A stretch of DNA of 64,000 nt, from assembly GCF_900172315.1 (NCBI RefSeq), contig NZ_FWFV01000002.1, forward strand, positions 372,001-436,000. Reading direction: 5' to 3'. The position numbers were made by a program, and so were the translations under genes. This DNA comes from Palleronia marisminoris (GTDB taxonomy: Bacteria > Pseudomonadota > Alphaproteobacteria > Rhodobacterales > Rhodobacteraceae). Positions 1 to 14,062 of the stretch are shown in pieces (the stretch's first letter is position 1; each line of letters begins with the position of its first letter). The notes below the pieces were generated by a model. It was given only the letters and a program-made list of their open reading frames with translations. It was not told where the DNA came from and searched no databases.

Positions 1-1
1 G

Positions 2-738
2 GTCAGCGATCCGCCCTAGGGCGTGAACTACGATCCCGCCTGGCGGAACGAGACCGGGGCGGCGAAGACGAAGCGGACGGGCAAGGTCGCAAATGACGAT
101 CGCGCCGACTGGCGGGAGGCCTGGGCGCTGTTCCCCGGCGACGTGGCCTATGTCTGGCACGGGGCGCTGCACGCAACCACGGTGGCCGAAAGCCTCGCCG
201 CCGAAGGTTTCGAAATCCGGTCCCAGATCATCTGGGCCAAGGAGCGCCTGGTGCTCAGCCGCGGGCACTATCACTGGCAGCACGAGCCGGCCTGGTACGC
301 TGTCCGCGGGACGGGGCATTGGTCAGGCGATCGCAAGCAATCGACGCTCTGGACAATCCCGAACCGGGACCAGGACGTCGCCACCGTGCATGGGACCCAG
401 AAGCCGGTCGAGTGCATGCGCCGGCCGATCCTGAACAACTCCAGCCCCGGACAAGCCGTCTATGAGCCGTTCTGCGGATCGGGGACCACGATCATTGCGG
501 CGGAAACCACCGGCCGGGTGTGTCACGCGGTCGAGCTCGACCCGGCCTATGTCGACGTGGCCGTGCAGCGCTGGCAGGCCTTCACCGGGCATGACGCGTC
601 CATGCGGAGAGTGGGGAGACCTTCGCCACCGTCGCCGACACCCGGGGGGGAGGGTCAAACTCTGGAGCCTCCGATCCGGAAACCGGCGGTCCCGGAAAAC
701 GCACGCACGGCCACAATTCGGACCGGGGGTCAGAATGA
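2..738 (+). pseudogene. Broken beta-class DNA methyltransferase (phage-type), 3' part
   Basis: The frame encodes the C-terminal part of an N4/N6 DNA methyltransferase; its 5' end lies outside the window. Motif IV (DPPY) precedes the AdoMet motif FCGSGTT near 471-488, the beta-class order. Two lesions are visible. At 17-19 the frame reads D-P-P-stop-G-V, so the catalytic tyrosine codon has become TAG. Near 595-598 one base is missing, after which the expected ending (V-H-A-E-S-G-E-T-F) continues in another frame to a TGA at 736-738. Without the frameshift repair, the frame from 23 runs on into the terminase gene and mimics a fusion. Such enzymes commonly sit just before packaging genes in alphaproteobacterial prophages. 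The lesions are seen directly; loss of activity is inferred. Confidence 0.85.
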
Positions 739-754
739 GGGAAGGGCATCGTTG

Positions 755-1237
755 ATGGCACCTCGTGGCCCGAAACCGAAGCCGACCCGGCTAAAGGTGC
801 TGACCGGTACCGCCCGGGCGCATCGCCTGAACCCGGCCGAGCCAAAGATCGAGCCCGCTGTTCCCGAGGCGCCCGACCATCTGAGCATTGAGGCGCACGC
901 GGAATGGATGCGGGTCACCGAGGAGATGGCACAGATGGGCATCCTGTCCGCGCTCGATCGCGGAGCCTTGGCGGCCTATGCCCAGGCCTATGGTCGGTGG
1001 GTGGCCGCCGAACGGGCGCTCAGGGTCATGGCCGCCCGGGACGCGGTGACAGCGGGGCTCGTCATCCGCACCCAGAGCGGCAACGCGATCCAGAACCCGC
1101 TGGTCGGCACGGCCAACAAGGCGATGGCGGACATGGTGCGCTACGCGTCGGAGTTCGGTCTCACGCCCTCGGCCCGCAGCCGGGTCTCGGCGGCACAAAC
1201 TCTCGATGCAGACGATCCGTTTGCACAGTTCGAGTGA
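755..1237 (+). CDS. Phage terminase small subunit, P27 family (copy 1)
   Basis: This 160-residue protein has the P27 layout: a basic proline-rich start (RGPKPKP), a central helical region with A-H-A-E-W and D-R-G-A-L-A-A-Y-A-Q, and the ending N-P-L-V-G then F-G-L-T-P-S-A-R-S-R. P27 small subunits recognise phage DNA and work with the large terminase. I chose ATG 755 because the P27 signature begins there and a purine-rich GAGGGAAGGG lies upstream; the open frame to the left belongs to the broken methyltransferase. No large-subunit gene follows, so this is probably a leftover from an incomplete prophage. Confidence 0.85.
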   Translation: MAPRGPKPKPTRLKVLTGTARAHRLNPAEPKIEPAVPEAPDHLSIEAHAEWMRVTEEMAQMGILSALDRGALAAYAQAYGRWVAAERALRVMAARDAVTAGLVIRTQSGNAIQNPLVGTANKAMADMVRYASEFGLTPSARSRVSAAQTLDADDPFAQFE

Positions 1238-1248
1238 GGAGGAGGAAG

Positions 1249-1467
1249 ATGCAGTCACGCCTATTGTCCCTGACCGAAGCCGCGGTGAATGTCGCGATCG
1301 GGTTCATCGTGGCGCTTCTGACGCAGATGGCCCTGTTCTCGGCCCTGGGGCTTCGCGTGTCGATGGACCGGCACCTGCTGATCGGGACCGTCTTCACGCT
1401 CGTCTCGCTGGCGCGGAGCTATCTGGTGCGCCGCTTCTTCGAACGCTACGGCCGCGGGAGGGGGTGA
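1249..1467 (+). CDS. Small two-helix membrane protein of prophage type (DUF7220-like)
   Basis: A 72-residue protein with two hydrophobic segments: about residues 13-32 (NVAIGFIVALLTQMALF) and 43-58 (HLLIGTVFTLVSLARSY). It ends in a basic tail (R-R-F-F-E-R-Y-G-R-G). Similar short membrane proteins are common in alphaproteobacterial prophages next to small-terminase genes, but their role is not known to me. A good ribosome site (GAGGAGGAAG) sits directly before ATG 1249. It follows the terminase gene by 11 bases and is followed at once by the HTH gene, so it belongs to the same operon. The family name is from memory. Confidence 0.7.
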   Translation: MQSRLLSLTEAAVNVAIGFIVALLTQMALFSALGLRVSMDRHLLIGTVFTLVSLARSYLVRRFFERYGRGRG

Positions 1468-1469
1468 CC

Positions 1470-1901
1470 ATGGCACGGCCGCAGATCACGCTTTCGGAGG
1501 CGCAGCGCGCGGAGGTCGAAACGCTCGCGGCTCTTCTGAGCCAGGAGCAGATCGCCGACTACTTCGGGATCGCGCGCAATACCTTCCGGGCGATCTGCGA
1601 CCGCGAGCCCGAGGTTCTCGCGCGGTATAAAAGGGGCAAGGCGAAGGCCATCGCCCATGTCGCCAACGGGCTGCTGCAGAAGGCCCGGTCGGGCTGCACG
1701 ACTTCGTCGATCTTTTATCTCAAGACCCAGGCCGGGTGGCGGGAGACGGCCGAGATCCAGCACTCGGGCGGCGCCAGCATCGAGCACAAGGGCAAGGCGT
1801 CCGACGCGATCGCCCGGATGCTCGACCAGATCGCCGAACGGAAGGCGCGCATCGGCGTCGACCGAGTGACGGAGGCAGGCGCCGATGAGACGCGGTCCTA
1901 A
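1470..1901 (+). CDS. Helix-turn-helix phage protein, possible packaging or DNA-binding factor
   Basis: A 143-residue protein starting at ATG 1470, two bases after the previous stop. The N-terminal half holds a clear helix-turn-helix: S-Q-E-Q-I-A-D-Y-F-G-I-A-R-N-T-F-R-A-I at about residues 24-42. Then follow a basic linker (RYKRGKAKA) and a conserved-looking L-Q-K-A-R-S-G ... S-I-F-Y-L-K-T-Q-A-G-W-R-E stretch. The latter pattern is usual in small phage proteins that resemble terminase small subunits of a different family. The last bases overlap the next gene by 17 bases, supporting a single packaging operon. Its exact function cannot be told from sequence. Confidence 0.7.
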   Translation: MARPQITLSEAQRAEVETLAALLSQEQIADYFGIARNTFRAICDREPEVLARYKRGKAKAIAHVANGLLQKARSGCTTSSIFYLKTQAGWRETAEIQHSGGASIEHKGKASDAIARMLDQIAERKARIGVDRVTEAGADETRS

Positions 1902-2388
1902 GCCCCGGCCCAAGGCAGCGCCCGCGCTGAAGGCGGGCGGCCTGCCGCGCTGCCCGGACCACCTCGATCACGTCGCCCGCAAGGAATGGCGCAGGCTTGC
2001 CAGCCCGCTCTTCGAGGCAGGCATCCTCACCGTCGCCGATCGAGCGGCATTCGCGGCCTACTGCCATTCCTACAGCCAATGGGTCGAGGCCGTCAGGAAA
2101 CAGAGCGAGACCCCGAAGCTTCTCAAGACGCCGTCGGGCTACGTGCAGCAGTCGCCCTGGATCGGGATCGCGAACAAGCAGCTGGAGCTGATGGGGCGGT
2201 ACATGGCGGAGCTGGGCCTGACGCCCACCTCGCGCACCAGGTTGGCCGACATCCTTGATCCCTCCGCCGAGGAGGAGCCGCTGGTCTTCAAGGTCATCTT
2301 CGAAGGCTCTGACGGCACATGCCGGGACGCGCTGGGCAACATCGTCGAGGATCGGCCGGACGCGATCGAACTGGACGAGAGGCTCTGA
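1885..2388 (+). CDS. Phage terminase small subunit, P27 family (copy 2)
   Basis: A second P27-type protein of 167 residues. It shares the basic start (RRGPKPRP), the D-H-V-A-R-K-E-W-R-R helix, the D-R-A-A-F-A-A-Y segment, P-W-I-G-I-A-N-K-Q and the L-G-L-T-P-T-S-R-T-R ending. It diverges strongly from copy 1, so it is not a recent duplication. After about residue 135 it carries an extra acidic tail. The large terminase normally expected next is absent: 78 bases on, a serine recombinase begins. Two P27 proteins in one packaging operon may reflect joining of two prophage ends, or one may have taken another role. Confidence 0.8.
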   Translation: MRRGPKPRPKAAPALKAGGLPRCPDHLDHVARKEWRRLASPLFEAGILTVADRAAFAAYCHSYSQWVEAVRKQSETPKLLKTPSGYVQQSPWIGIANKQLELMGRYMAELGLTPTSRTRLADILDPSAEEEPLVFKVIFEGSDGTCRDALGNIVEDRPDAIELDERL

Positions 2389-2428
2389 GGCGCACCTGGG
2401 ACTACACTTCGTCCGGCTCCCGAGCGAC

Positions 2429-2466
2429 GTACACACCTGCGCAACGAACGTCAGGCAGGTGTGTAC
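2429..2466. repeat. Perfect 11-bp inverted repeat touching the recombinase start codon
   Basis: The arms GTACACACCTG (2429-2439) and CAGGTGTGTAC (2456-2466) are exact reverse complements around a 16-base spacer. The right arm ends at the base before ATG 2467 and takes the place of a normal ribosome site. It could be an operator for autoregulation, part of the recombinase crossover or accessory site, or an RNA hairpin limiting translation. The symmetry is seen; the role is inference. Confidence 0.6.
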
Positions 2467-3174
2467 ATGGTCAGGGAAATACCGGCGCTCAGATTGGTGG
2501 CCTACGAGCGGGTCTCGACGGCCCGGCAGGGTCGGTCCGGGTTGGGGCTCGCCGCCCAACGAAAGGCCATCGACGACTTCGCCGTGTCCAGGGGAGTTGA
2601 AGTTCTGGCGCGCTTCACCGAGATCGAGAGCGGGCGCAGGAACGACCGTCCGGAACTGGAGAAGGCGCTGAACCTGGCGCGTCTCACAGGCGCCACACTG
2701 GTCATCGCCAAGCTGGATCGCCTCAGCCGCAACGCCGCCTTCCTGCTGACCCTGCAGGGCAGCGGCGTCCGCTTCGTCGCCTGCGACCTGCCGGAGGCCA
2801 ACGACCTGACCGTCGGCATCATGGCGCTGGTCGCCCAGCAAGAGCGCGAGGCGATCTCCCGGCGTACGAAGGAGGCGTTGGCAGCGGCGAAGGCGCGGGG
2901 CGTGAAGCTGGGCAACCCCAACGGTGCTGCGGCGCTCAGACGGGCCGGCAAGGGCGGTGCGGCGCTGCGGGAGGCCGTCAGGTGCAACGCGGATGCCTTC
3001 GCGGTGGAGGTGATGCCGGTGGTCGAAGAGATCAGGGCGGCAGGGAGCACCTCCTTGCGGGCAGTGGTGGCTGAACTGAACGCGCGCGGGATCAGGACGC
3101 GGCGCGGCGGGCAGTGGCATGTGTCGACAGTGCGGAACTTGCTGAGGCGGCTCTACCGTGGTGGCCTTGCTTAA
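2467..3174 (+). CDS. Serine recombinase (resolvase/invertase family)
   Basis: A 235-residue recombinase. The N-terminal catalytic domain shows Y-E-R-V-S-T-A-R-Q with the nucleophilic serine, then [12 protein letters not shown] and [15 protein letters not shown], the hallmarks of resolvases. The C-terminal part (from about residue 195) is an HTH-like recombinase segment, [11 protein letters not shown], ending in [12 protein letters not shown]. The usual Y-x-R-V-S-T has glutamate at x. ATG 2467 is preferred; GTG 2461 lies inside the inverted repeat. It probably moved or resolved the surrounding element. A degraded copy of its C-terminal end lies 6.7 kb downstream (9875-9985). Confidence 0.9.
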
Positions 3175-3317: not shown

Positions 3318-3610
3318 ATGAGCAAGACGACGAGCAAATTCTTCCCCGAGGTCCGCGAGCGAGCGGTGCGAATGGTTCTCGACAACGAAGGGCAGCATGA
3401 GTCTCGCTGGCAGGCGATTGTCTCGATCGCGGCTAAGATCGGCTGCTCGGCCAACACGCTTAACGCCTGGGTGAAGAAGGCCGAGGTGAGCAGCGGCACG
3501 CGAGCAGGCATCCCGAGCGACACGGCCGAGAACTGAAGGCGCTGGAGCGGGAGAACCGCGAGCTGCGCCAAGCCAATGAGATAATGCGCAAAGCATCAGC
3601 TTATTTTGCG
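3318..3610 (+). pseudogene. IS3 transposase OrfA, frameshifted
   Basis: ATG 3318 begins a typical IS3 Orf[20 protein letters not shown], followed by the HTH part [15 protein letters not shown]. About 3528-3533 one base is lost, giving a TGA at 3534. The leucine-zipper-like continuation ([17 protein letters not shown]) remains readable in the next frame to about 3610. The gene is inactive as it stands. Confidence 0.8.
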
Positions 3611-3673
3611 ATGATCGAAGGCAGCAGCGGCATCGCTTCAAGCGCTGCCTGAGATGCTCGACCGCCGGTCGAA

Positions 3674-3913
3674 GTGATGGTGTCGTTCATCGACATGCAT
3701 CGTGGGGAGCATGGGGTCGAGCCGATCTGCAACGTCCTGCCGATTGCCCCGTCCACTTATTACGATCATCTGGGCAAGCGGGCCGATCCGACCCGGCTGT
3801 CGGATCGTGCGCGGCGTGACGCAGCACTGCAACCCGAGATCCTGCGCGTGAAGGTCTCCGCCAGCTTCACCAGTGGCGGCGGAAGGGCAATGCTGGAGGC
3901 ACCTTGCGGCTGA
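3674..3913 (+). pseudogene. IS3 transposase OrfB, N-terminal fragment
   Basis: The frame reads F-I-D-M-H-R-G-E-H-G-V-E-P-I-C, then L-P-I-A-P-S-T-Y-Y-D-H-L and R-A-R-R-D-A-A-L-Q-P-E-I, the usual beginning of IS3 OrfB. Recognisable similarity ends near R-V-K-V, before the catalytic rve domain. It is a dead fragment that marks recombination on the left side of the nucleotidyltransferase cassette. Confidence 0.75.
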
Positions 3914-4201: not shown

Positions 4202-5251
4202 ATGAGCGCCCTCAACGAGCTTCGCGGCCCTGACACCACCCGCTGGCCCAACATAACAGCAGCCGAGGACCTTAGCCGCCGAAAGCTGGCTCTGCTGACG
4301 GACGCCGTGAGGGGCCTGCTCCCGACCGACGAGGGCGGACTGATTGTCTTTGGCTCTTTAGCAAGACGCGAGTTTACCTTGGGCAGCGATCTTGACTGGG
4401 CAGTGTTGATTGACGGCCAAGCGAACTCCCAGCACCTGCAAATCGCCCGAGAAATAAAAATTGAAGTGGAGAAAGCTGGCTTCGGCAGACCTGGCCCGAC
4501 TGGTGTTTTCGGCGGCCTCGTATTCAGCCATGAGCTGATTCACGCTATCGGCGACGACGAGGACACAAACAGAAACATGACCCGAAGATTATTATTGTTG
4601 CTTGAGTCCGCGCCTATCACCGAGTCCGCGAGTCAAATTGTTCATAGCCGCATCATCCGAGGCATCATTACGAGGTATGTCGAAGAAGACGCAAGCTTCA
4701 TCCGCCCAGACGAGCAAAAAGGGAGGATTCCAAGGTTCCTTCTGAACGACGTCGTCCGCTTCTGGCGAACTATGGCCGTCGACTACGCGAACAAGCATCG
4801 CGAAAGAGGGGGCGAAAAGTGGGCCCTTCGCAACATCAAGCTTCGAATGTCGCGCAAATTGCTCTTTGTGTCTGGGCTTTTCATGTGCGCGACGTGGGCA
4901 CTGAACGATGAAGGCAGTGATACCGATGCGTTTCGCAGCCTAAAGCTCAAGGAGCACCTCCTTCTGTGGACACAGCGACCTCCGCTCGAGTCGCTGGCTC
5001 TGCTGGTTAAGGAGCACGCCCCCAATTTAGCAGATGACATATTGGGCAACTATGACAGGTTCCTGTCTCTGCTCACTGAAAATGAAGCTCGTGAGACACT
5101 TGAGTCCCTGAGTCCCGAGGAAGCATATGAGAACCCGGTGTTTCTTAACGCACGAGAGATTGCTATCGATTTCGATAGCGCGCTATTGAAGCTTATGTTT
5201 GAATCGGACAAACGTGTCGCCGACCTCATAAAGAAATATGGAGTGTTCTGA
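4202..5251 (+). CDS. Nucleotidyltransferase-fold protein of unknown role, first gene of a two-gene cassette
   Basis: About 349 residues from ATG 4202 (364 from ATG 4157, which also has a purine-rich site). The DNA polymerase beta-type nucleotidyltransferase signature is clear: I-V-F-G-S-L-A-R-R-E-F-T then G-S-D-L-D-W-A-V-L, with two metal-binding aspartates. Downstream are T-R-R-L-L-L-L-L-E-S and R-F-L-L-N-D-V-V-R-F-W-R-T-M, seen in an uncharacterised family of stand-alone nucleotidyltransferases; the rest is helical. The stop codon overlaps the start of the TIM-barrel gene, so the two are translationally coupled. Base composition is near 50% GC, well below the neighbours, and IS fragments lie on both sides, pointing to transfer. 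A defence or toxin-like role is a guess from context; the substrate is unknown. Confidence 0.8.
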   Translation: MSALNELRGPDTTRWPNITAAEDLSRRKLALLTDAVRGLLPTDEGGLIVFGSLARREFTLGSDLDWAVLIDGQANSQHLQIAREIKIEVEKAGFGRPGPTGVFGGLVFSHELIHAIGDDEDTNRNMTRRLLLLLESAPITESASQIVHSRIIRGIITRYVEEDASFIRPDEQKGRIPRFLLNDVVRFWRTMAVDYANKHRERGGEKWALRNIKLRMSRKLLFVSGLFMCATWALNDEGSDTDAFRSLKLKEHLLLWTQRPPLESLALLVKEHAPNLADDILGNYDRFLSLLTENEARETLESLSPEEAYENPVFLNAREIAIDFDSALLKLMFESDKRVADLIKKYGVF

Positions 5252-6003
5252 TGCTGACGATCGGATTTTCGACGGGTGCTTTGGCGCTCAGTGATTTTAA
5301 TCACGCCTTGAAGCTGCTAAATGAAACAAAGGCTAGTGCGGTTGAGCTGTCGGCTCTTCGCGCTGTCGAACTCCCGAAGCTTTTAGACGCGCTACAACCG
5401 CTCCTAGGGGCGATAAGAAACCAGTACCGCTACGTTAGCTTTCATGCGCCGACTAACTTCGAGGATGAGGTCGCGCTGGTAGAGCAGTTAATGTACGTAG
5501 CCGATCTTGGTTTGAACATCGTGGTTCATCCGGACACCATAGTTAGTGCTAAAGCTTGGCGGCGGCTAGGATCGTATCTCTGCTTGGAGAACCTCGACTC
5601 CAGAAGGAAAACGGGTCGAACCGCCGATGAGCTGGAAGGCTTTTTCAATGAGGTAACTGAGGCGAAGCTGTGCTTTGATATTGCCCATGCGAGGCAAGTA
5701 GATCCAACGATGATGGAGGCCGCTCGCATTCTTGAACGGTTTGGAAGCAGATTAGCGCAAGTTCATATCAGCGAACTCAATAGTCGGGGCAAACATTTCG
5801 GGGTCTCTTATGCAGCCCAGTTGGCCTATAAGCCTTTTGCCGATGTTATGTCTAGGGTACCGATCATCGTAGAATCAATTGTGGAGGAACGACATATTGC
5901 GACCGAGTTGCTTAGAGTAGGGAAGATATTTGAGCCTCTGAGCGAGCAGTGGAATTCCAAGGGCTCTGCTGAGCGCGGCGGCCTTAGGCTAAGCTTGGCG
6001 TAG
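5251..6003 (+). CDS. TIM-barrel protein (xylose isomerase / endonuclease IV-like fold)
   Basis: A 250-residue protein starting at ATG 5251, whose A is the last base of the preceding TGA. Its layout fits the sugar phosphate isomerase/epimerase superfamily: N-terminal I-G-F-S-T-G-A, then A-V-E-L-S-A, Y-V-S-F-H-A-P, I-V-V-H-P-D, L-C-L-E-N-L-D, L-C-F-D-I-A-H-A, V-H-I-S-E-L and I-I-V-E-S-I-V at successive strand ends. The histidine, glutamate and aspartate residues at these places are the expected metal ligands, so it is probably a metal-dependent enzyme. The substrate is not evident: isomerase, epimerase or AP-endonuclease-like activity are all possible. It shares the low GC of its partner and ends shortly before IS6 fragments. 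Confidence 0.8.
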   Translation: MLTIGFSTGALALSDFNHALKLLNETKASAVELSALRAVELPKLLDALQPLLGAIRNQYRYVSFHAPTNFEDEVALVEQLMYVADLGLNIVVHPDTIVSAKAWRRLGSYLCLENLDSRRKTGRTADELEGFFNEVTEAKLCFDIAHARQVDPTMMEAARILERFGSRLAQVHISELNSRGKHFGVSYAAQLAYKPFADVMSRVPIIVESIVEERHIATELLRVGKIFEPLSEQWNSKGSAERGGLRLSLA

Positions 6004-6027
6004 GTCTGCATTTGGTGATGTCAGGCC

Positions 6028-6125
6028 AATGCGAACCAGTCTCAATTCCAACGGAGGCAGCTGTTATTCTGTGGTGAGGCCGTGCCACTCGGCAAGAGCA
6101 GCGTCACGGCTCAACTTAAAACTGG
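6028..6125 (-). mobile_element. IS6-type transposon right-end fragment, inverted
   Basis: Read on the minus strand, this stretch resembles the 3' end of the intact IS6 element at 14159-14973. It encodes S-R-A-S-F-K-L-S-R-D-A-A-L-A-E-W-H-G-L, a stop, then CGTTGGAATTGAGACTGGTTCGC in place of the terminal repeat. It is about 98 bases long and diverged from both other IS6 copies. It points opposite to the fragment at 6280-6598 and marks the right edge of the nucleotidyltransferase cassette. Confidence 0.65.
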
Positions 6126-6279
6126 CTCGACTGTAGAGGTGTAAGCGGTGACTGCGCCCCACGTTGTCGGGCATCTGCGTGATTGCGAGACGTACCTTTC
6201 TCAAGATGGGGAGTGCGTTACGCAATGTGTGCTACGAATTCGTTTTTCAGATCGCTAGGTGTGGAGGTTTATGCGTCGG

Positions 6280-6598
6280 GGATTTGTCAGAGGAACCCAG
6301 CTTGAGGCGGGCAGGAGACTGATCGGTGGCTGAACAACCGGGTGGAGAATTCCCACCTGCCGTTCCGACGACGAGAGCGGGCGATGCAGCGTTTCCGGCG
6401 GATGCCAAGTCTGCAGAAGTCCGCCGCGGTTCACGCCGCTGTCTCCAACCAGTTCAACCAGGAACGCAGCCTCTCCAGCCGAGCCACCTTCGAACTGAAC
6501 CGCGCCGCCGCTCTCGCCGCATGGCGCGGCCTCTGCACGGCATAGAGATCTACCTCCATCGGACATTTGAGACTGGTTCGAATTCGTCTGACAGCACC
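6280..6598 (+). mobile_element. Internally deleted IS6 element with both ends (MITE-like)
   Basis: The left end (GGATTTGTCAGAGGAACCC) and about 35 terminal bases are joined directly to the last ~280 bases of an IS6-family element. The join falls just before the codons for R-W-L-N-N-R. The right end is CTGACAGCACC at 6598. Compared with the intact copy at 14159-14973, about 500 internal bases are missing, including two of the three DDE residues. The remaining transposase tail reads E-N-S-H-L-P-F-R-R-R-E-R-A-M-Q-R-F to a TAG at 6543-6545. With both ends kept, it could in principle still be mobilised by a related transposase. No target duplication is visible. Confidence 0.75.
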
Positions 6599-6806
6599 GC
6601 CTAGCCAGCTCGCGGAGGAGCGAGTCCCATCGATCGCGGCGCATCGCACGGCTCGTGCTACGGTTTCACGCGATCAACGAGCAACAGGGACTAGCTGCAG
6701 GTAGATGGTGGTAGGCGCGGCCAAACATGTCCTGACCGGCATGGGCAAAAAGTGCACCTCATGTCATGCCCTCTTTCGGCGCCGCGGCTGGGTTACCGCG
6801 AACCGG

Positions 6807-10093: not shown

Positions 10094-11092
10094 ATGTCAG
10101 TCAGCATGGCTGCCCCCCTCGGCATCTTCGCAGCGATACTGGCCTCTCCTGCGGCGGCGGACCTCGCCATTGCGACCTGGAACATCGACGGGGGGCAGCG
10201 CACTCCCGCAGAGTTGCGGTCGTCTGCGGCAGAGATGGAGGCGGACGCAGGAGAGATCGACCTGCTTGCCCTCCAGGAGGTGATCTCGGAAGAGCAGGTC
10301 CAGGCGATCGCGGACGGCTTGGGCCTCGATCACTGGGCGATCAGCGACTTCTCACCGCCCATCGAGATCACGTGAGCGTGGTTCAAGTCGCTGGAAGTCG
10401 CGGTCGTAAGTGCAGTTCCGATCACCGCTGCGGCGGAATGGGACCCGTACGATGACGCATACACGCCACGGCTCTCGTCCGACTCGCCTGCGACGCAGGA
10501 GCTGAAAATCGGGATCGAGTTCGAGGGGAGTGTCCCGTCCCGTGGATTTCTACGGGTAGACTTGGAGCACGACTGGTCGGTCTTTGCCACCCACTGGAAA
10601 TCTTCGAGGGGAGCGTCCTGCAACGCGGAGGATCTGGCCAACGCCGAACAGCGGCAGGATCAGGCCGAGGGCCTCGTCGTGAACGCAACCGAGGCACTGG
10701 GCGACGGACGAACGGTCGTGATCGCCGGCGATCTGAACATACAGGCGCCGGGTCGGCACCTGCGGGTCGGCAGCGATCCTGCCGAGGATTGCCAGCCTGA
10801 AGGCATCTGTGACGGGTTCTGCGGGGCGGGAGTGAAGGACGGCTACGACGACAGCATCGCGGCTCTTCTCGGTCTTGGCGAAAACGCCCGGCTCCTCTCG
10901 GCGGAGCTGCCGCACACATACGTCCGACAGTTCTACCCGGGCCGCGCAATCGACCATCTGCTCGTCGCCGGACCTCGTGCAGAGGCTTTCGGAGAGGCGA
11001 CGACCCCCAAGGTTGCGGGCACAAGCTACCGCGGCTCGGATCGCCGGCCGGTCATCGCGAAACCGGACCCCGGTTCAGAACCAAGGCAATGA
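10094..11092 (+). pseudogene. Endonuclease/exonuclease/phosphatase family gene with in-frame stop
   Basis: A single frame of 333 codons encodes a secreted EEP-fold protein, broken by TGA at 10373-10375. The N-terminus is a signal peptide (A-A-I-L-A-S-P-A-A-A) followed by A-T-W-N-I-D-G-G and L-A-L-Q-E-V. After the stop the same frame continues with A-W-F-K-S-L-E-V-A-V-V-S, T-H-W-K-S-S-R-G-A-S-C-N, I-A-G-D-L-N and A-I-D-H-L. The final catalytic S-D-H motif reads S-D-R-R-P-V, so its histidine is arginine. One nonsense codon plus loss of the active-site histidine point to an inactive gene. A downstream restart (TTG 10562) would lack the nucleotide-binding N-terminal motifs. Confidence 0.85.
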
Positions 11093-11332: not shown

Positions 11333-11502
11333 GCGACCCGTCTAACCGCATGGATTCGCGTTGTGAATCGTCCCCCGTCAGAGTTCTGCAACAACGCCCC
11401 ATCCGTTGCACAGGCAGAGACGCGTCGCTATTGAATGATTGGACAGGCCATTGCTCGCTAGCTGGATGTCCACCACTCTAGGATCATGAAGAAGGTCGCT
11501 TG

Positions 11503-13035
11503 GTGAAGAAGATGAGGAAGAGGGGTGCGTCTTTGAAAAAAACCGTGAGGAAGGTCCAAGTTAAATTCGCAAGGTTATTTGGCCTACACAGTATCGTCTT
11601 GCGCGAGGCTGTGAGGCGGGCCGAACGATTCTCAGGAAGCGAAGAGAGCCACAAGAAAGAGGCCGCCCGGAACTTCATGCGGAAGAGCATTTTCGATGCG
11701 CTAGTGTACATCGAATCACCTTCCCTGCCGGGAACTGAAAAATCCTTGAGCGACCCAGCGGTCGCGCAGCGCCACGTTAATAATTTTCCCAAATATCGTA
11801 AACGGCTGAGCCGCCTCAACCTCGGCGCCCTGCAGGCCAAACCGCCTAAACAAGACATCGCAGAAACTTGGGTGCCTCCAAATGATCGCCCTCTTCGCTG
11901 TGCCTTTGTTTCTGGTAATTTCACGTTTCTTCAAAACGTGATCGAGGCCGTAACTTCGTCCGGAATCGAAGCCAGAACGATAAATTGGACTGATCTGAGG
12001 AAGAAGGTAAACGATTATGCACCTCGCGACGGCGCTCGCATAGCTCAAAAATACAGCACCCGGAACGCGATTGCATGTCAGAAGGTCCTCCCATACGACA
12101 ACAAACTACACACCCAGATCCTTCGCGAGGTCGCACCGCTCGATGCCCGAATCTTGGAGTGGGCTGACATCATCTTCGTTGAATGGGCGACGGAAGCTGC
12201 CGCATGGTTTTCCAGCTGGCTTCCTTTACAAAAACGATTGGTGGTACGGTGCCATAGGGGTGAAGCCTTCACCCTATGGACGAATCTGATTAACGTAGCG
12301 CGTGTTGATCAGTTCATTTTCATTGAAAGCCATATCCGCGATCTATATTTGATGCGAACGGCCGCAGCCGAGGAGCTTCGAAGCCGCGCTCTCGTATGTA
12401 GCAATCTAAGGACCGCGCCTAAGCCTAGCTCAAGTATCCGCGACGCTAATTCCTCAGTTTATAAGATATGTATGGGCGTCAACGGCACTCCTTATAAAGA
12501 TCCCCTATTTGCGCTTCAGGTACTTCGCGAGATCCGGAAAACTGATCGGAGATATGAACTACACTTGATCGGTAGCCCCCTCGGGGCAGCGACTCCACAT
12601 TTGTGGGCCGAGAGCCATTGGAAGCGCTATCTTCGAGATTTCGCAGCCCTAAGATCAGAACTATCTAACAGTGTTCGCGAGTATGGGCACATTTCGGATC
12701 CGAGCATTCACTTCATAGACATGGGCCACGTTCTCTCATGCAGCTTATCAGAGGGTTCACATGAATTCGTCGCGGAGGCAATGCTGCAAGGTTGTATACC
12801 ATATGTTCGGCGTTGGCCGCTACATATTGCCTTCAAAGGAGCGGAGCGGACTTATCCGTCAGCCCACCATTTTTCTTCTCCACGTGAGGCTGCAGTGCTA
12901 ATTATGAGAAACTCTACAAGGTTCGAAGAAGTATCAGCCACTTATGCGAAGGATGCAGAAGAAGTTTATTTCTCCGCGAGTAGCGCAACGGATACAATAA
13001 ATGCAATAACTGGGTCATCCGCAAGTCATGACTAA
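11503..13035 (+). CDS. Putative GT-B type glycosyltransferase, surface polysaccharide
   Basis: About 510 residues, starting at GTG 11503 behind GAAGGT; TTG 11500 and ATG 11512 are alternatives. The C-terminal half has the look of a GT-B glycosyltransferase: G-V-N-G-T-P-Y-K-D-P ... A-L-Q-V-L-R-E-I, L-H-L-I-G-S, then S-L-S-E-G-S-H-E-F-V-A-E-A-M-L-Q-G-C-I-P-Y. The last is the donor-site loop with its glutamate. The N-terminal 100 residues are basic and helical with no family I recognise. There is no signal peptide. GC content is near 50%, unlike the flanking core genes. It overlaps the next glycosyltransferase gene by 8 bases, so both probably build one glycan. Acceptor and donor are unknown. 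Confidence 0.7.
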   Translation: MKKMRKRGASLKKTVRKVQVKFARLFGLHSIVLREAVRRAERFSGSEESHKKEAARNFMRKSIFDALVYIESPSLPGTEKSLSDPAVAQRHVNNFPKYRKRLSRLNLGALQAKPPKQDIAETWVPPNDRPLRCAFVSGNFTFLQNVIEAVTSSGIEARTINWTDLRKKVNDYAPRDGARIAQKYSTRNAIACQKVLPYDNKLHTQILREVAPLDARILEWADIIFVEWATEAAAWFSSWLPLQKRLVVRCHRGEAFTLWTNLINVARVDQFIFIESHIRDLYLMRTAAAEELRSRALVCSNLRTAPKPSSSIRDANSSVYKICMGVNGTPYKDPLFALQVLREIRKTDRRYELHLIGSPLGAATPHLWAESHWKRYLRDFAALRSELSNSVREYGHISDPSIHFIDMGHVLSCSLSEGSHEFVAEAMLQGCIPYVRRWPLHIAFKGAERTYPSAHHFSSPREAAVLIMRNSTRFEEVSATYAKDAEEVYFSASSATDTINAITGSSASHD

Positions 13036-14062
13036 AAAGAGTCTCTATGCCCTATACTCGAATGTCGATCGCATCGAGCCCTCGACAGGCGATCGGATTA
13101 ACGAGATTCGACTGCTTTCTCGACTCTCTGAATATTTCGACGTGTACTATAACAATGAGATATTTAACTTTAGGGGTCCGGCCTGCGGAAATTCCGGCAC
13201 GCTTGGGCCAAACCGTGAATATGATTACTACTATATACGCCACAACCCCGCAGTTTTTCATTCGATCCGTGGTGTTCGATTCTCGTTTGCTCATCCATTT
13301 GTGCAAGAAGTTTTCGAGCAGGCAGATGCCCTCTTTGTTCTCACGGAAAATTGGCGGCGCCATCTTTTGTCGGGGTCGATGGAGAGCGAGAGAGCTCTCG
13401 AGGCCGCATACGGAAATGCCGACCCCCACTTCAATTGTCCAGTAATAAATGTTGGGCAGGTTTATGATGAAAGCTTTGTCTTGAGGGAGCGCAATCCCAA
13501 AAAGGAGTTTGCGTTACATGCGCGGATGTCTCTCGGCCGAGCCTTTGGGTTTTATGGAAACTTGTCTAATGACCTCTTCCCTTATACCGCCTTTTCCGCC
13601 CTAGAGCGTCTCTTTGAAGAGGGCTCGTCACTTGACCCAATCATTTCGTTGGCGGGCAAGTTTCGGCGGGGCTCCTCTTTTACTGGAAAGAATGTAATTT
13701 ATTTGGGTCAGATCCCGTACGATGACATGCCGTCTCTACTAAGGGCGAGCTGCGCCACACTGACAAATGAGAGCGAGTTGAATAACACTCTTGGAAATCA
13801 AAAAACGCTCGACTCAATGTCGCTGGGCGTTCCGGTTATGTGCAGCAAGCTCGATACATTTGTGTGGCATCTCGGTGACGATTACCCTTTTTTTTACGAG
13901 AGTGAGAATGAAGCATACAACAAGGCGAAAGTGCTGACTTTTGATGATGATGCTCGTGTTGAAGTCGGCAGAGCGCTTGCAGAGCGTGCTCTTTCGAAAT
14001 TCTCATTCTCTGTCTGGCGGGATGAGCTCGGGCGCCAACTAAAGGAGCATGGATTCTATTAA
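13028..14062 (+). CDS. Putative GT-B / family 4-like glycosyltransferase
   Basis: A 344-residue protein beginning inside the last codons of the preceding gene. The N-terminal part starts Y-S-N-V-D-R-I-E-P-S-T-G-D-R-I. The middle holds F-G-F-Y-G-N-L-S-N-D, a typical start of the C-terminal Rossmann domain. Then follow V-I-Y-L-G-Q-I-P-Y-D-D-M-P-S-L-L, L-T-N-E-S-E-L-N-N-T-L-G-N-Q-K and S-M-S-L-G-V-P-V-M-C-S, the order found in family 4-like glycosyltransferases. The low GC and lone pairing with the upstream transferase suggest a horizontally acquired scrap of a capsule or lipopolysaccharide locus. The substrate cannot be told. Confidence 0.7.
   Translation: MTKKSLYALYSNVDRIEPSTGDRINEIRLLSRLSEYFDVYYNNEIFNFRGPACGNSGTLGPNREYDYYYIRHNPAVFHSIRGVRFSFAHPFVQEVFEQADALFVLTENWRRHLLSGSMESERALEAAYGNADPHFNCPVINVGQVYDESFVLRERNPKKEFALHARMSLGRAFGFYGNLSNDLFPYTAFSALERLFEEGSSLDPIISLAGKFRRGSSFTGKNVIYLGQIPYDDMPSLLRASCATLTNESELNNTLGNQKTLDSMSLGVPVMCSKLDTFVWHLGDDYPFFYESENEAYNKAKVLTFDDDARVEVGRALAERALSKFSFSVWRDELGRQLKEHGFY

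What the first reader, a model, noticed from the sequence alone, without database searches (positions are those of the whole stretch)
4202..6003. Low-GC nucleotidyltransferase plus TIM-barrel cassette in a transposon-riddled spot
Two translationally coupled genes encode a stand-alone polymerase-beta-type nucleotidyltransferase (G-S-L-A-R-R-E, S-D-L-D) and a xylose isomerase/endonuclease IV-like TIM-barrel protein with intact metal-ligand positions. The pair is close to 50% GC, is bounded by an IS3 remnant on the left and inverted IS6 pieces on the right, and neighbours a HelD/nuclease helicase. I know of no described system with this pair. A nucleotide-transfer plus metal-enzyme module in an island is a fair candidate for defence, toxin-antitoxin or nucleotide-derivative metabolism.
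Basis: partly seen in the sequence, partly recalled or inferred. Interest (0 to 1): 0.72.

Follow-up and report, generated by a model that had tools for sequence, protein, structure and literature searches.

The report
Nucleotidyltransferase paired with a swappable phosphoesterase
Two overlapping genes encode an enzyme that probably attaches a nucleotide to something and an enzyme that probably cuts phosphoester bonds; the pair is listed as an untested phage-defence candidate, and relatives of the first gene sit beside three other, unrelated phosphate-cutting enzymes, which hints at a write-and-erase switch.

Summary
The genes at 4202-5251 and 5251-6003 overlap (TGATG), carry intact catalytic residues, have 53% GC (flanks 61%) and lie between insertion-sequence remnants. 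The pair is already listed: PDC-M70A (E 1.4e-141) and PDC-M70B (5.6e-95), an unnamed phage-defence candidate in PADLOC-DB; no paper in the library held names it. All 15 relatives of the TIM-barrel gene found in a scan of 84,980 genomes have nucleotidyltransferase sequence beside them, in three phyla and both gene orders; one distant plasmid relative does not. At least 5 of 13 loci examined lie near named defence genes (Lamassu, Bil, SIR2, AbiEii, a DNA methylase). In three Patulibacter species the pair looks vertically inherited, which argues against defence alone. New here: distant relatives of the nucleotidyltransferase pair with three unrelated phosphoesterases instead (SAMHD1-type HD, 2H-like, histidine phosphatase). 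The TIM barrel keeps eight invariant metal-ligand-type residues, seven in register with endonuclease IV in a weak alignment. I propose a nucleotide writer with a phosphoesterase eraser, probably in conflict or stress control (0.38). The main rival is a Clover-like system where the nucleotidyltransferase makes a signal that restrains the metalloenzyme (0.27). No activity, substrate or phage protection is shown.

The parts
4202..5251 (+). Polymerase-beta-type nucleotidyltransferase with helical C-terminal domain (PDC-M70A)
   Evidence: PADLOC PDLC04778 E 1.4e-141; DUF294 25.9 bits, cut-off 21; model pLDDT 88.7; best solved folds DrrA and GlnE, weak, none at E <= 0.001
5251..6003 (+). Xylose-isomerase/endonuclease-IV-like TIM barrel, probable metal-dependent phosphoesterase (PDC-M70B)
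   Evidence: PADLOC PDLC04779 E 5.6e-95; AP_endonuc_2 in 7 of 15 members, not in the window's own protein; model pLDDT 86.0; Foldseek UlaE 1.6e-7, EndoIV 4.5e-7
5249..5253 (+). Stop/start junction TGATG joining the two genes
   Evidence: one-base overlap in 14 of 14 sequences shown there, window included (TGATG in 12, TAATG in L040 and L047); in L038 the NT gene ending there is truncated
3318..3913 (+). Transposase remnants left of the pair (orfA piece 3318-3536; second piece 3674-3913 judged IS3-like by eye)
   Evidence: HTH_Tnp_1 E 1.3e-5 for 3318-3536; no Pfam hit for 3674-3913
6014..6598 (.). 585-bp element bounded by 32-nt inverted repeats with a broken transposase ORF (IS6-like by eye)
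   Evidence: the repeat finder I1; ORFs 6326-6604 and 6342-6545

Best explanation
A two-gene nucleotidylylation switch. Inferred: NT transfers a nucleotide from an NTP to a cellular target, more likely a protein than a small molecule; the partner, a metal-dependent TIM-barrel phosphoesterase, removes or destroys that product and so keeps NT in check. Losing the balance, for example during phage infection, would let NT block growth, so that NT acts as toxin/effector and TIM as antitoxin/eraser. Shown: genes, overlap, conserved pairing, catalytic residues, and other phosphoesterases in the TIM barrel's place beside related NTs. Inferred: chemistry, target, who is toxic, and the defence role.
For: (1) The TIM-first scan found 15 loci and all 15 have NT sequence beside them, overlapping in Proteobacteria and Acidobacteria, order reversed with a short gap in the four Actinobacteria. 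(2) Relatives of NT, most found by NT-first searches, carry other phosphoesterases next door: HD in L006, L052, L065-L067, L079-L083, L102; 2H-like in L068/L106, L101, L103, L104; histidine phosphatase in L005 and L052. In the NT-first set 14 of 28 genomes, or 8 of 13 genera, have one (1 TIM, 9 HD, 4 2H). The four partner profiles hit nothing in 283 kb of control DNA. (3) TIM keeps H65, H93, E113, D143, H146, H172, H182, E208; seven of these fall in register with ligands of E. coli EndoIV (P 0.045; ligand list recalled). (4) NT's nearest solved folds are protein adenylyltransferases DrrA and GlnE. (5) Three loci keep the hydrolase gene open while NT is broken (L038, L043, L101). GlnD, whose NT and HD domains add and remove UMP, is the known parallel (recalled).
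Against: Foldseek finds no solved fold for NT at E <= 0.001 (best 1.1e-3; TM 0.38-0.49 for the top DrrA and GlnE rows). The EndoIV alignment is not significant, EndoIV D229 falls on a glycine, and our TIM profile does not hit E. coli nfo, which was in the control DNA; TIM's best fold hit is an epimerase. Two of the three broken-NT loci were found through TIM, so that skew is expected. Half of the NT-first genomes show no partner in the flanks read, and the partner need not act on NT's product: SAMHD1-type HD proteins hydrolyse dNTPs. In Patulibacter the pair looks vertically inherited.
Confidence: 0.38

Rival explanations
1. Clover-like logic: NT makes a nucleotide signal that restrains (or fires) the metalloenzyme, and TIM is the effector, for example a nuclease or nucleotide hydrolase, released during infection.
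For: In Clover the HD dGTPase CloA is toxic and the NTase CloB makes p3diT that restrains it; its Extended Data Fig. 1 legend colours CloB homologues by the adjacent effector protein (PMC12265719, abstract, passages and section 5). HD partners of this NT family match SAMHD1-type dNTPases (2o6i E 1.5e-19). TIM's fold resembles EndoIV among others.
Against: Histidine phosphatase and 2H partners are not usual killers (recalled). NT's best folds are DrrA and GlnE; the signal enzyme HalB first appears at rank 11. Homology to CloB could not be tested (no CloB sequence at hand); sizes seem to differ (NT 310-349 aa; CloB at most about 280 aa by my estimate from the printed operon length and CloA residue numbers).
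Confidence: 0.27
2. Type-VII-like toxin-antitoxin: TIM is the toxin and NT the antitoxin that inactivates it by adding a nucleotide (as MntA does to HepT).
For: NCBIfam's best hit for NT is MntA antitoxin (20.9 bits); tight gene overlap.
Against: Far below the cut-off of 60 bits; no HEPN seen in the partner; loci with broken NT keep TIM open (L038, L043), odd if TIM were the toxin, though both were found through TIM.
Confidence: 0.13
3. Metabolic or repair pair: NT and the hydrolase make or recycle a nucleotide-linked metabolite (surface sugar, cofactor), carried on mobile DNA as cargo.
For: L005 lies in a glycosyltransferase cluster; the window has a glycosyltransferase-type gene pair from 5.5 kb away (only the second has a Pfam hit); NT of genus g53 and the pair in Patulibacter lie in chromosomal settings; TIM has a fold shared with sugar isomerases.
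Against: No Pfam family recurs in more than 3 of 141 flank proteins in the capped lists; at least 5 of 13 loci lie by named defence genes; residues shared with EndoIV are not all expected of an epimerase (recalled).
Confidence: 0.17

Closest known systems
PDC-M70 (PADLOC-DB 2.0.0, phage defence candidate)
   Same: Both proteins match its two models over nearly full length and are adjacent.
   Different: Nothing to differ from: no function, mechanism or paper found. This report adds distribution, partner exchange and a mechanism.
Clover (CloA HD dGTPase + CloB NTase)
   Same: Two-gene metallo-hydrolase plus Pol-beta NTase; some relatives of this NT have a SAMHD1-type HD partner.
   Different: The window has a TIM barrel, not HD; CloB homology untested; sizes seem to differ.
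GlnD / GlnE reversible nucleotidylylation
   Same: NT plus a hydrolase; NT's fold nearest to DrrA and GlnE, weakly.
   Different: GlnD is one fused protein with its own sensor domains (recalled); NCBIfam [protein-PII] uridylyltransferase scores 12 bits against 631.
MntA-HepT, type VII toxin-antitoxin
   Same: Pol-beta NT paired with a second small gene.
   Different: No HEPN seen in the partner; MntA cut-off not met.
CbiR cobamide phosphodiesterase / endonuclease IV
   Same: AP endonuclease 2 TIM barrel with His/Asp/Glu metal ligands (PMC7733943, passages).
   Different: CbiR cut-off of 105 bits not met; weak CbiR matches also occur in 11 of 14 control genomes, so they show the superfamily only.

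Membership tests
PDC-M70 (PADLOC) | Protein A matches PDC-M70A | tested here: met
   E 1.4e-141, residues 2-349 on 6-355 of 355
PDC-M70 (PADLOC) | Protein B matches PDC-M70B and is adjacent | tested here: met
   E 5.6e-95, residues 1-230 on 1-230 of 238; genes overlap
PDC-M70 (PADLOC) | Protects against phage | not testable with these tools
   No paper naming it found
Clover | HD-domain dNTPase partner | tested here: not met
   Partner in the window is a TIM barrel; no HD hit beside it
Clover | NTase homologous to CloB | not testable with these tools
   No CloB sequence reachable; paper seen as abstract, passages and section 5
Type VII toxin-antitoxin (MntA-HepT) | MntA-type minimal NT over the curated cut-off | tested here: not met
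   20.9 bits against 60
Type VII toxin-antitoxin (MntA-HepT) | HEPN partner | tested here: not met
   No HEPN in the Pfam list or the 50 fold matches shown
GlnD | NT and HD fused, uridylyltransferase score over cut-off | tested here: not met
   12 bits against 631
AP endonuclease 2 superfamily (PF01261) | Profile match and TIM-barrel fold | tested here: inconclusive
   7 of 15 members match (best 3.5e-10), not the window's own protein; fold agrees
Endonuclease IV | Nine metal ligands | tested here: inconclusive
   Seven positions in register and conserved; D229 position a glycine in the window; H69 position outside the alignment, H65 a candidate. EndoIV ligand list is recalled
CbiR | NCBIfam score over 105 bits | tested here: not met
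   14.8 bits for the window
2H phosphoesterase (partner in related loci) | Two H-x-[TS] motifs | tested here: met
   H38-x-T40 and H103-x-[TS] in 3 of 3 aligned; Pfam support weak, 0.0091 at best

The most novel reading that the evidence does not exclude
One nucleotidyltransferase family has recruited four unrelated phosphoesterase folds (EndoIV-like TIM barrel, SAMHD1-type HD, 2H, histidine phosphatase) as interchangeable partners that undo or gate the same kind of nucleotide product: a general, undescribed writer-eraser nucleotidylylation switch, used by mobile islands as immunity and by some hosts as a resident regulator.
Probability: 0.3. Interest if true: 0.82.

Novelty: new variant of a known kind. 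Interest (0 to 1): 0.56.

Why it matters
Nucleotidyltransferases are common in bacterial immunity, as signal makers, toxins or antitoxins, and the role of an NT beside a hydrolase cannot be read from sequence. Exchange of four unrelated phosphoesterases around one NT family points to a shared chemical need and turns an unnamed database entry into testable biochemistry. The HD-paired form on a 4.5-kb E. coli plasmid and the TIM-paired form here could be compared side by side in K-12.

Tried and rejected
Rejected or weak: PDB sequence search with either protein (none) and with profiles (no TIM relative; for NT only matches to the NT core). The CbiR match as evidence of cobamide chemistry (the same weak match rings in 11 of 14 control genomes, 0 over cut-off). 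Viral carriers: NT and TIM scans of viral contigs gave one NT relative, L052; phage records none with the L052 NT (the window's own proteins were not searched there); BFVD fold search best E 1.2e-2. The L006 NT in E. coli: 1 of 5,426 genomes, the plasmid itself. GajB-type PADLOC hits of the neighbouring helicase as a sign of defence: the control set shows the same kind of hit. A 5'-nucleotidase upstream of NT in L003 as a third gene: not found at the other loci searched. UlaE gave no usable alignment for a ligand comparison. Two neighbours in one Patulibacter locus had no PDB relative. Searches added no new lineage (0 of 48; 3 of 3 already known). L097-L100 are a distant NT group without a seen partner, used as outgroup.

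Limits: TIM-first ascertainment; the genome scan rests on two peptide patterns (65 stretches, 15 confirmed), so diverged relatives are missed. One search (PDC-M70A family, 398 genomes) gave 28 genomes; 4 strong ones were used, the 24 weak, mostly NT-core hits were not read. Partners were sought with four profiles and by eye in flanks of 1.5 to about 7 kb (less where a contig ended), so other partners can be missed. Gene calls are my own simple scorer. The PADLOC control is 141 proteins of 9 arbitrary regions in the window's own family (13 asked for, 11 delivered), not of the loci's own genomes; 37 further control proteins were not scanned. The PADLOC tallies list families, not proteins, and show 25 of 32 and 25 of 60 families. 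Genes over 1200 aa or under 90 aa were dropped before that scan. The actinobacterial loci were not in it; of the window three proteins were scanned. The 2H, HD and histidine-phosphatase profiles rest on few sequences.

Full report
WHAT IS THERE. NT runs 4202-5251 (+, 349 aa) and TIM 5251-6003 (+, 250 aa), with a shared stop/start base. GC is 0.541 and 0.514, against 0.611 in the flanks (4.2 kb left, 8 kb right) and 0.645 in the window. The genome held has one match to each protein. To the left is a transposase remnant (HTH_Tnp_1, E 1.3e-5) and a serine-recombinase gene at 2461-3174; to the right a 585-bp element with 32-nt inverted repeats and a helicase-IV-like gene.

ALREADY LISTED. PADLOC-DB holds both proteins as PDC-M70A (E 1.4e-141) and PDC-M70B (E 5.6e-95). 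PDC stands for phage defence candidate (PMC12429752, passages); such candidates came from a 'guilt-by-embedding' approach (PMC12988326, passages). No paper in the library held contains 'PDC-M70'. Two other PDCs tested in their native host showed no evidence of activity (PMC12409345, passages). Pfam sees only DUF294/NTP_transf_2-type matches in NT and nothing credible in TIM.

THE PAIR IS CONSERVED. A scan of a collection of 84,980 genomes with a TIM alignment gave 15 relatives; all 15 have NT sequence beside them. They come from Rhizobiales, one Acidobacteriaceae MAG, and four Actinobacteria (Conexibacter, Patulibacter). In the Actinobacteria the order is TIM then NT with a short gap. In two loci NT is broken (L038 keeps a C-terminal piece; L043 is split between frames) and L046 begins inside NT at a contig end. 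Two plasmid loci (L003, L004) also have the pair; a distant TIM relative on a Miltoncostaea plasmid (L007) has no NT hit. The pair is rare: TIM was found in 1 of 385 genomes of the class at E <= 1e-10, the window's own.

NEIGHBOURS. 141 flank proteins of 13 loci (L037-L047, L003, L004) were scanned against PADLOC at 1e-15. Named defence kinds include Lamassu A/C/B beside L043, BilD beside L042 and a type II DNA methylase beside L037; L003 is annotated with SIR2 and ThiF-type genes and L004 with AbiEii, which fits the SIR2, HerA, Bil and AbiEii families in the tally. So at least 5 of 13 loci have a named defence gene within about 10 kb, one of them (L037) only a methylase. In a control of 141 proteins from nine arbitrary regions of other genomes of the window's family no family went below 5.4e-38 (17 families in all), whereas 13 named kinds among the 25 families listed did so in one half of the flank set (67 proteins). 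The window's own neighbouring helicase gives only the generic GajB-type hit among the best 25 shown. Against a purely mobile role: in three Patulibacter species the pair has host GC (0.737-0.745) and blocks of similar flank DNA, and the Conexibacter pair has host GC too (0.747), while in the 14 other loci the pair has lower GC than its flanks.

NT'S OTHER PARTNERS. NT-first searches found relatives in 28 genomes of 13 genera. Reading the DNA beside them showed other phosphoesterases: an HD protein (3 genomes of genus g242, 5 of 14 of g53, and G1084), a 2H-like protein with two H-x-[TS] motifs (G509, G787, G1149, G1178), and the TIM barrel only in the window's genome. In three of the five g53 cases HD lies about 0.56 kb from NT; in one of these, G361, an opposite-strand ORF lies between. 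In all, 14 of 28 genomes, or 8 of 13 genera, have a partner; the 14 without one in the flanks read are 9 of g53, G1161 and four distant outgroup NTs. Outside that set, the E. coli plasmid L006 has HD then NT (the HD gene crosses the record's origin), the viral contig L052 has HD-NT-histidine phosphatase, and L005 has NT-histidine phosphatase. A profile of four HD partners matches SAMHD1-type dNTPases (2o6i, E 1.5e-19). The four partner profiles hit nothing at E <= 1e-3 in 283 kb of control DNA, which included E. coli nfo and ulaE. In a tree of 30 NTs the 15 TIM-paired ones form one clade (100/99); the 2H-paired L104 and L106 group with L103, whose 2H partner was found afterwards, and L105, which has none seen (100/99); L101 was not in the tree; HD-paired ones are not resolved, and long branches call for caution.

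MECHANISM. NT keeps G-S-x2-R-x-E and D-x-D in 30 of 30 sequences. Its model (pLDDT 88.7) is nearest, weakly, to DrrA (E 1.1e-3) and GlnE (6.1e-3), both protein adenylyltransferases. TIM (pLDDT 86.0) resembles UlaE (1.6e-7) and endonuclease IV (4.5e-7) about equally. Profile comparison with E. coli endonuclease IV is not significant (P 0.045), but H93, E113, D143, H146, H172, H182 and E208 fall on H109, E145, D179, H182, H216, H231 and E261; D229 falls on a glycine (EndoIV ligand numbering recalled). All eight TIM residues, H65 included, are invariant in 15 of 15. I therefore favour a metal-dependent phosphoesterase over a sugar isomerase, without proof. That all four kinds of partner are phosphoesterases or phosphohydrolases is best explained if the partner acts on the product of NT: a writer and an eraser, as in GlnD (recalled). 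The rival is Clover (PMC12265719), where an NTase makes p3diT to restrain a toxic HD dGTPase; the HD-paired relatives make this rival serious, and CloB homology could not be tested. Chemistry, target, toxicity and defence are not shown for any member.

Noticed in passing
L006 (E. coli plasmid pISHS7_5, 4499 bp): A very small plasmid that carries an HD-NT pair; the HD gene crosses the record's origin and is not in the listed annotation (2 features).
   Followed up: partly
L043:11064-14533: Complete-looking Lamassu set (LmuA, LmuC, LmuB) just downstream of a TIM gene whose NT partner is split between frames.
   Followed up: partly
L003:10929-13830 and L042:10983-12371: Bil-type genes (BilD by PADLOC in L042; ThiF-type annotation in L003) lie just downstream of the pair in two Mesorhizobium records whose DNA there is 93% identical over 1.6 kb.
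   Followed up: partly
L101:6430-7562: NT relative that has lost its catalytic core while the 2H-like partner gene is open.
   Followed up: no
L049, L050, L051: TIM-NT pair among similar flank DNA in three Patulibacter species with host-like GC: looks resident, not mobile.
   Followed up: partly
window 11500-14062: Second low-GC stretch (GC 0.507 and 0.485) with two overlapping genes, the second a glycosyltransferase (Glyco_trans_1_2, 2e-7).
   Followed up: no
window 10094-11092: Two ORFs (10094-10375 and 10562-11092, +) that read by eye like one interrupted endonuclease/exonuclease/phosphatase-type gene.
   Followed up: no
window 1-3174: Methylase-like and phage terminase-like ORFs (by eye) followed by a serine recombinase (Resolvase, 4.2e-27): probably a prophage remnant beside the pair.
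   Followed up: no
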